Assembly (NCBI GenBank): GCA_018883785.1
Contig: JAHLFO010000057.1
Coordinates: 1-41,751 of the forward strand
Source: Candidatus Bacteroides intestinipullorum
GTDB taxonomy: Bacteria > Bacteroidota > Bacteroidia > Bacteroidales > Bacteroidaceae
DNA: 41,751 bases
Direction: 5' to 3'
Shown: piece after piece, positions 17,307 to 17,485 of the stretch
Numbering within the stretch: position 1 is the first letter of the stretch
Layout: the number at the start of each line of letters is the position of its first letter
Program-made: the position numbers and the translations under genes
The notes under the pieces: model-generated
The model's input: the letters and a program-made list of their open reading frames with translations, nothing else
Databases searched by the model: none
What the model was told of the DNA's origin: nothing

Positions 17307-17322
17307 TGGCACGCTTTTTGGA
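17307..17322 (+). promoter_or_regulatory. Sigma-54 promoter (-24/-12)
   Basis: TGGCACGCTTTTTGGA versus consensus TGGCACG-N4-TTGCW: one mismatch (C to G), exact spacing. Confidence 0.7.
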
Positions 17323-17332
17323 ATAAGGCTAA

Positions 17333-17485
17333 AGGGGATTCTCTGTACACTAACCCTAAATTCTTATTGTTCTAATAAACCCATGAGTTTCCCCCAAAAG
17401 CTAGTATTAGTAGCAGTCCTGTTTATGTTTGTTTGTGGTAAAACCGTTCCCTCCTTGTCTATTCTGGGGGAACGGTTTTCTTGTT
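17333..17485 (+). ncRNA. Putative sigma-54-dependent small RNA (may contain a short ORF)
   Basis: Inferred start 12 nt after the -12 element, ends at a perfect 12-bp hairpin; no long ORF in the interval. Confidence 0.45.

What the first reader, a model, noticed from the sequence alone, without database searches (positions are those of the whole stretch)
17307..17485. Candidate sigma-54-dependent small RNA (or small peptide) gene next to a sigma-54 response regulator
Directly seen: TGGCACG-N4-TTGGA (17307-17322) matches the sigma-54 -24/-12 consensus with correct spacing and one mismatch. About 110-120 bp downstream of the inferred start is a perfect 12-bp hairpin (17440-17479). The interval holds no conserved-looking CDS beyond a 39-aa hydrophobic ORF. 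It lies immediately 3' of an NtrC-type activator gene. Established precedent: in gammaproteobacteria, sigma-54-driven sRNAs (Qrr with LuxO, GlmY with GlrR) are encoded near their activator. Inference: this is an analogous activator-sRNA module in Bacteroidales of about 150 nt.
Basis: partly seen in the sequence, partly recalled or inferred. Interest (0 to 1): 0.82.

Follow-up and report, generated by a model that had tools for sequence, protein, structure and literature searches.

The report
Sigma-54 regulator with dedicated small RNA
Beside a sigma-54 response regulator, Bacteroides species carry a short gene that this regulator appears to switch on; relatives make a small secreted protein from it, but in this species the protein part has decayed while the control DNA and two RNA pieces stay nearly unchanged, so it now looks like a small regulatory RNA.

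Summary
The -24/-12 match alone is at chance level (0.54 expected per window), but comparison across the genus settles it. Downstream of the NtrC-type regulator gene stand a dyad TGTGGAA-N3-TTCCACA at helically phased distances (58 of 62 loci), a YTGGCAC-N5-TTTG sigma-54 site, and a transcript whose terminator loop GUCUAUUC is constant although its stem changes. Of 68 regulator loci with a promoter, 65 have the dyad and 65 the loop; 31 encode a small secreted protein, while 37, including the window, have lost that ORF. In ORF-less loci a 37-nt element (17402-17438) and the loop stay 94% and 93% identical, against 55-59% around them. The 39-aa ORF is a remnant; the RNA would be about 154 nt (17333-17486). 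Best reading: a small RNA under sigma-54 and a dedicated response regulator, derived from a small-protein mRNA. Expression, targets and signal are unknown. The arrangement resembles CbrB-CrcZ, GlrR-GlmY and LuxO-Qrr, but it belongs to none of them and to no Rfam family at threshold.

The parts
15882..17216 (+). NtrC-type response regulator (receiver, sigma-54 AAA+ with GAFTGA loop, Fis-type HTH), inferred activator of the RNA
   Evidence: Pfam Response_reg, Sigma54_activat, HTH_8; GAFTGA read in the sequence; ortholog at E<=1e-150 in 115 of 160 genus genomes
17224..17240 (+). Upstream activator dyad TGTGGAA-AAA-TTCCCCA, inferred binding site of the regulator
   Evidence: 1 mismatch to TGTGGAA-N3-TTCCACA; 3 window matches at <=2 mismatches against 0.16 expected; conserved and phased in 58 of 62 loci
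17258..17264 (+). Possible second activator half-site TTCCACA
   Evidence: sequence only; similar extra half-sites in several relatives
17307..17322 (+). Sigma-54 -24/-12 promoter TGGCACG-N4-TTGGA
   Evidence: equivalent site in all homologous loci with enough flank
17333..17486 (+). Predicted small RNA, about 154 nt
   Evidence: start inferred from promoter geometry, end from terminator
17383..17502 (+). 39-aa ORF, remnant of the small secreted-protein gene (signal-peptide part fused to the terminator)
   Evidence: full-length versions in relatives; no in-frame start in close relatives L004/L128, L046, L051
17402..17438 (+). Conserved RNA element A (UAGUAUUAGUAGCAGUCCUGUUUAUGUUUGUUUGUGG)
   Evidence: 64 of 160 genus genomes; mean pairwise identity 94% in 29 ORF-less loci; no synonymous change at several codons in ORF-bearing loci
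17440..17486 (+). Intrinsic terminator hairpin and U-rich tail
   Evidence: 53 distinct, well-paired stem sequences in relatives
17457..17464 (+). Invariant terminator loop GUCUAUUC, the most widespread RNA feature of the family; candidate seed or binding site
   Evidence: 65 of 68 loci; mean unpaired probability 0.95; near-unique per genome
9933..12272 (-). Hybrid histidine kinase (HisKA-HATPase-REC-Hpt), candidate sensor feeding the regulator
   Evidence: Pfam; kept upstream of the module in many relatives; partnership inferred

Best explanation
A two-component signal phosphorylates the NtrC-type regulator (15882-17216). It binds the dyad at 17224-17240 and, with RNA polymerase carrying sigma-54, opens the promoter at 17307-17322. 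The product is an RNA of about 154 nt ending at the hairpin 17440-17479. Ancestrally this transcript was an mRNA for a small secreted protein. Its 3' end (terminator loop GUCUAUUC, usually preceded by AGUAAGCACAC) and the segment called element A gained RNA-level functions. In the window's clade the ORF decayed and a regulatory RNA remains, acting most likely through element A and the exposed loop, by pairing with other RNAs or by binding an RNA-binding protein. Shown here by comparison: conservation of regulator, dyad, promoter, loop and element A, and loss of the ORF. Inferred: transcription, binding by this regulator, ancestral direction, and trans action of the RNA.
For: Promoter at the same place in all loci with flank. 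Dyad in 58 of 62 loci at about -82, -104, -117 and -127 from the -24 GG, i.e. helically phased. In 11 of 14 genomes searched a perfect dyad lies at this locus, and in six of these it is the only one in the genome. Regulator gene adjacent in most loci. Loop kept in 65 of 68 loci and in 36 of 37 ORF-less loci, while stems vary in 53 ways. Element A 94% and loop 93% identical in ORF-less loci, against 55%, 57% and 59% for 5' region, middle and downstream. ORF without in-frame start or with early stop in many loci. In 39 ORF-bearing sequences codons TTA, GTA, TTT, TTT and TGT in element A show no synonymous change, although valine codons downstream are used evenly. B. fragilis carries element A twice in one transcript, once upstream of the small-protein start. 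rpoN is present in this genome.
Against: No transcript, start-site or mutant data. Element A is not universal, and one lineage (L266, G127) has synonymous changes in it while keeping the protein. No conserved complementary target was found for A or for the loop. The window copy has lost motif C, so it could be a decaying gene.
Confidence: 0.7

Rival explanations
1. It is only a small-protein gene under sigma-54 control. The window copy encodes a 39-aa membrane peptide, and the nucleotide conservation reflects the signal peptide.
For: 31 of 68 loci have an intact ORF of the MKKLVLV type; basal loci such as L288 and L279 encode small secreted proteins without the RNA loop; 248 homologous proteins in databases; L266 keeps the protein with synonymous changes.
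Against: 37 loci lack the ORF but keep promoter and nearly always dyad and loop. Close relatives of the window (L004/L128, L046, L051) have no start codon in that frame with the same nucleotides. No synonymous change at several codons. The constant terminator loop lies outside the ORF in the long forms.
Confidence: 0.12
2. A protein-sequestering RNA (CrcZ-like sponge): element A and the loop bind an RNA-binding protein such as RbpB rather than mRNAs. This is a sub-variant of the best explanation that differs in the last step.
For: G/U-rich element A is duplicated within one transcript in B. fragilis; no conserved complementary target found; RbpB binds about 60 sRNAs in B. thetaiotaomicron (PMC11697453); CbrB drives CrcZ (PMC7602753).
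Against: Usually one copy of A, not a repeat array; A is missing in several lineages; no binding data.
Confidence: 0.2
3. Element A is a DNA element: TATGTTTG matches the Bacteroides housekeeping -7 box (TAnnTTTG), so a second promoter lies inside the unit.
For: Exact match of TATGTTTG to TAnnTTTG (consensus from own knowledge; sequence); constant in the loci.
Against: No TTG/TTTG about 19-21 nt upstream; conservation covers the whole segment and not just the boxes; in the window the resulting RNA would be only about 45 nt.
Confidence: 0.07
4. A decaying gene: the window and its closest relatives carry a short, dying version without function.
For: The short form lacks motif C and the middle; the ORF is lost; the genome is an incomplete MAG (83.7% complete).
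Against: Five short-form relatives of different species keep promoter, element A, stem and loop almost unchanged while flanks diverge.
Confidence: 0.08

Closest known systems
CbrB-CrcZ (Pseudomonas)
   Same: A response regulator of the NtrC class drives an RNA (listed in PMC7602753); RNA gene beside the regulator gene (own knowledge)
   Different: CrcZ is a larger CA-motif sponge for Crc/Hfq (own knowledge); no Rfam match here; no comparable ORF history known to me; different phylum
GlrR-GlmY (Enterobacteria)
   Same: Sigma-54 response regulator activates a small RNA
   Different: Regulator scores 349.6 bits against the GlrR cut-off of 763; no GlmY/GlmZ hit in Rfam
LuxO-Qrr (Vibrio)
   Same: Phosphorelay with hybrid kinase and Hpt, same regulator domain order, sigma-54 promoter, RNA close to the regulator gene
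   Different: Regulator 327.2 bits against the LuxO cut-off of 800; no Qrr hit; Qrr RNAs have several dispersed copies and no secreted-protein ORF (own knowledge)
SgrS/SgrT-type dual-function RNAs
   Same: One transcript both mRNA of a small protein and regulatory RNA, with the ORF present or absent among relatives (own knowledge)
   Different: No sequence relation; here the ORF precedes the constant 3' end and codes for a secreted protein
Bacteroides sRNAs GibS, FopS, BatR, BTnc201
   Same: Bacteroides RNAs with a terminator; BatR also acts as a processed 3' part (PMC10861873)
   Different: FopS and BatR are reported with housekeeping-type promoters, GibS with another motif; BTnc201 model 23.5 bits against threshold 105; BatR neighbours (zinc finger, Lrp/AsnC, methyltransferase) not found here

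Membership tests
Sigma-54-dependent genes | -24/-12 promoter with fixed spacing, conserved in orthologs | tested here: met
Sigma-54-dependent genes | Phased activator site upstream; activator with GAFTGA AAA+ domain; rpoN in the genome | tested here: met
Sigma-54-dependent genes | Transcription lost without RpoN or regulator | not testable with these tools
   needs mutants
Bacterial trans-acting sRNA | Conserved RNA segment independent of an ORF, with own promoter and terminator | tested here: met
Bacterial trans-acting sRNA | Conserved complementarity to target mRNAs | tested here: inconclusive
   No recurrent target for A or loop in 13 genomes with long sites; short seeds cannot be tested this way
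Qrr | Match to the Rfam Qrr model; LuxO ortholog | tested here: not met
   no Qrr hit; LuxO model below cut-off
GlmY/GlmZ | Match to Rfam models; GlrR ortholog | tested here: not met
BTnc201 (RF04177) | Score at or above the gathering threshold of 105 | tested here: not met
   23.5 bits in the window; no hit in B. faecis and B. xylanisolvens loci
BatR (BTnc167) | Published flanking genes and housekeeping -7 promoter box | tested here: inconclusive
CrcZ | Array of CA-rich Hfq/Crc-binding motifs | not tested
   no such array is evident in the window sequence; not searched formally

The most novel reading that the evidence does not exclude
A regulatory RNA caught being born from a protein-coding gene: a sigma-54/response-regulator-controlled mRNA for a small secreted protein acquired RNA function in its terminator loop and signal-peptide region, then repeatedly lost its reading frame while the RNA and its dedicated regulator persisted. 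As far as the searched papers show, it would be the first sigma-54-dependent sRNA described in Bacteroidota.
Probability: 0.45. Interest if true: 0.78.

Novelty: new variant of a known kind. Interest (0 to 1): 0.64.

Why it matters
Sigma-54 regulons in gut Bacteroides are little described, and the paper searches here found no sigma-54-controlled small RNA in that phylum. This module gives a regulator, its probable DNA site and its apparently main output in cultured species (for example B. fragilis, B. xylanisolvens, B. clarus), so it can be tested directly. The natural series from full small-protein mRNA to ORF-less 150-nt RNA separates peptide from RNA function without engineering and bears on how small RNAs arise.

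Tried and rejected
Rfam at gathering threshold: only a 5S rRNA at the window end. The best sub-threshold hit, BTnc201 (23.5 of 105 bits), aligns G/U-rich text and is not confirmed in relatives. Target search for element A: the recurrent hit CCACAATCAATCATRAA (window 38489-38507) lies in an MBL-fold gene that I read as ribonuclease Z, with the coding strand in the same sense as element A, so a codon coincidence and no pairing. Sites complementary to the loop: no orthologous recurrence beyond near-identical species pairs and the locus itself. Element A as housekeeping promoter: judged unlikely. MAFFT alignment of the terminators misaligned the stems, so stems were compared after folding. The automatic ORF call missed the B. 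fragilis ORF and the terminator of two tandem loci; both were corrected by hand.

Full report
What is in the window. The sequence TGGCACG-CTTT-TTGGA at 17307-17322, the 12-bp hairpin at 17440-17479 and the 39-aa ORF at 17383-17502 are all as described. The gene upstream is a response regulator with receiver, sigma-54 AAA+ and Fis domains, and the genome encodes sigma-54. On its own the promoter match is worth little: 0.54 such sites are expected by chance in the window. A dyad TGTGGAAAAATTCCCCA lies at 17224-17240; matches of that quality are rare here (3 found at up to 2 mismatches against 0.16 expected).

Conservation of the control region. BLAST of the interval found relatives in the genus. 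A pattern search found the segment 17402-17438 in 64 of 160 genus genomes and in 57 stretches of named genomes, all labelled Bacteroides, Mediterranea or Caecibacteroides. The regulator, about 65-95% identical, stands directly upstream in most; in a few species other genes have been inserted between. A (Y)TGGCA(C/T)-N5-TTTG site stands roughly 80-170 nt before the conserved UGUUUAUG in every locus with enough flank, except the second copies of two tandem duplications. The dyad TGTGGAA-N3-TTCCACA is found in 58 of 62 loci (14% in shuffled sequence). It clusters at about -127, -117, -104 and -82 from the -24 GG, steps that fit the helical turn. Of 14 genomes searched for the exact dyad, 11 have a perfect copy at this locus, and in six of these it is the only perfect copy in the genome; the others have at most three. 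The regulator therefore looks dedicated to this gene. That the dyad is the regulator's own site is inferred from co-conservation, not shown.

What the transcript is. In many relatives the transcript carries a gene for a small secreted protein (MKKLVLVVAMFMFVCGGSFLVKAQ followed by a variable low-complexity tail), then usually AGUAAGCACAC and a terminator. In other species the ORF is gone: no in-frame start, early stops or frameshifts. Of 68 regulator loci with a recognisable promoter, 65 have the dyad, 65 the terminator loop GUCUAUUC, 52 element A, 46 motif C and 31 an intact ORF. Of the 37 ORF-less loci, 36 keep the loop, 35 the dyad and 32 element A. On the regulator's tree the ORF label needs 9 changes, of which strongly supported branches force 2; the window lies in an entirely ORF-less group of 21 loci. 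In two of the most divergent loci the promoter drives small secreted proteins without the RNA loop (L288, L279), so the protein gene is probably the older state. The direction is inference, because the tree is a quick one with long basal branches.

Why RNA. In 29 ORF-less loci the mean pairwise identity is 94% for element A and 93% for the loop, but 55%, 57% and 59% for the 5' region, the middle and the downstream flank. In ORF-bearing loci several codons of element A have no synonymous change in 39 sequences. The terminator stem occurs in 53 sequence variants with pairing kept, while the loop does not change; the loop is predicted unpaired (mean 0.95) and is not a general feature of terminators in these genomes. 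B. fragilis has element A twice within one transcript. Counter-example: in L266 (G127) element A has synonymous changes and the protein is kept, so in some lineages the protein matters. Several lineages lack element A altogether, which makes the loop the most constant RNA part. In the window and its nearest relatives motif C and the middle are lost and element A is joined directly to the terminator, giving an RNA of about 154 nt in which element A is largely exposed.

Mechanism. Signal, through a kinase (candidate: the hybrid kinase with Hpt at 9933-12272, kept nearby in many species), to the regulator, to the dyad, to the sigma-54 promoter, to the RNA. The first and last steps are inference; the middle is supported by comparison. 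The RNA probably acts by base-pairing through loop and element A, or by binding a protein. Searches for conserved complementary sites found none that hold, so this stays open.

Known or new. Regulator-RNA pairs of this kind are known in gammaproteobacteria: LuxO-Qrr, GlrR-GlmY, CbrB-CrcZ, NtrC-NrsZ (PMC7602753). The regulator reaches no cut-off among the NCBIfam equivalogs shown, neither LuxO nor GlrR, and the RNA matches no Rfam family at threshold. Two main Bacteroides sRNA papers held in the library do not mention rpoN, and no paper on a sigma-54-dependent sRNA of Bacteroidota was found; the library is open-access only, so absence there is weak evidence. BatR was considered and not identified with it. 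A search of 296 genomes of the order found the terminator motif with GUCUAUUC intact only inside the genus. I file it as a new variant of a known kind: an activator-RNA module in a new phylum, with an mRNA-to-sRNA history.

Noticed in passing
window 17722-17781: Tandem array of an 11-nt unit (ACCTTCGCTWY-like) in the intergenic region after the RNA; similar arrays lie on eight other contigs of this genome, on both strands.
   Followed up: partly
L002/L131, downstream of the terminator: In Candidatus Bacteroides pullicola the RNA is followed by a different tandem array (CACAGTACGGGTGTGAC-like units).
   Followed up: no
L101 (B. nordii), L112 (B. salyersiae), L116 and L126 (B. fragilis): Tandem duplication of the small-protein ORF, or of element A alone, within one transcript, about 115-318 bp apart.
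   Followed up: partly
L288 (G102): A divergent relative: the same regulator, dyad and promoter drive tandem small secreted proteins of about 100 aa of another sequence, with no Pfam family above its cut-off.
   Followed up: partly
window 38489-38507: An MBL-fold coding sequence (read as ribonuclease Z) resembles element A in the same sense in several species; taken as a coincidence of codons.
   Followed up: yes
window 41677-41751: Truncated 5S rRNA at the window end (minus strand).
   Followed up: no
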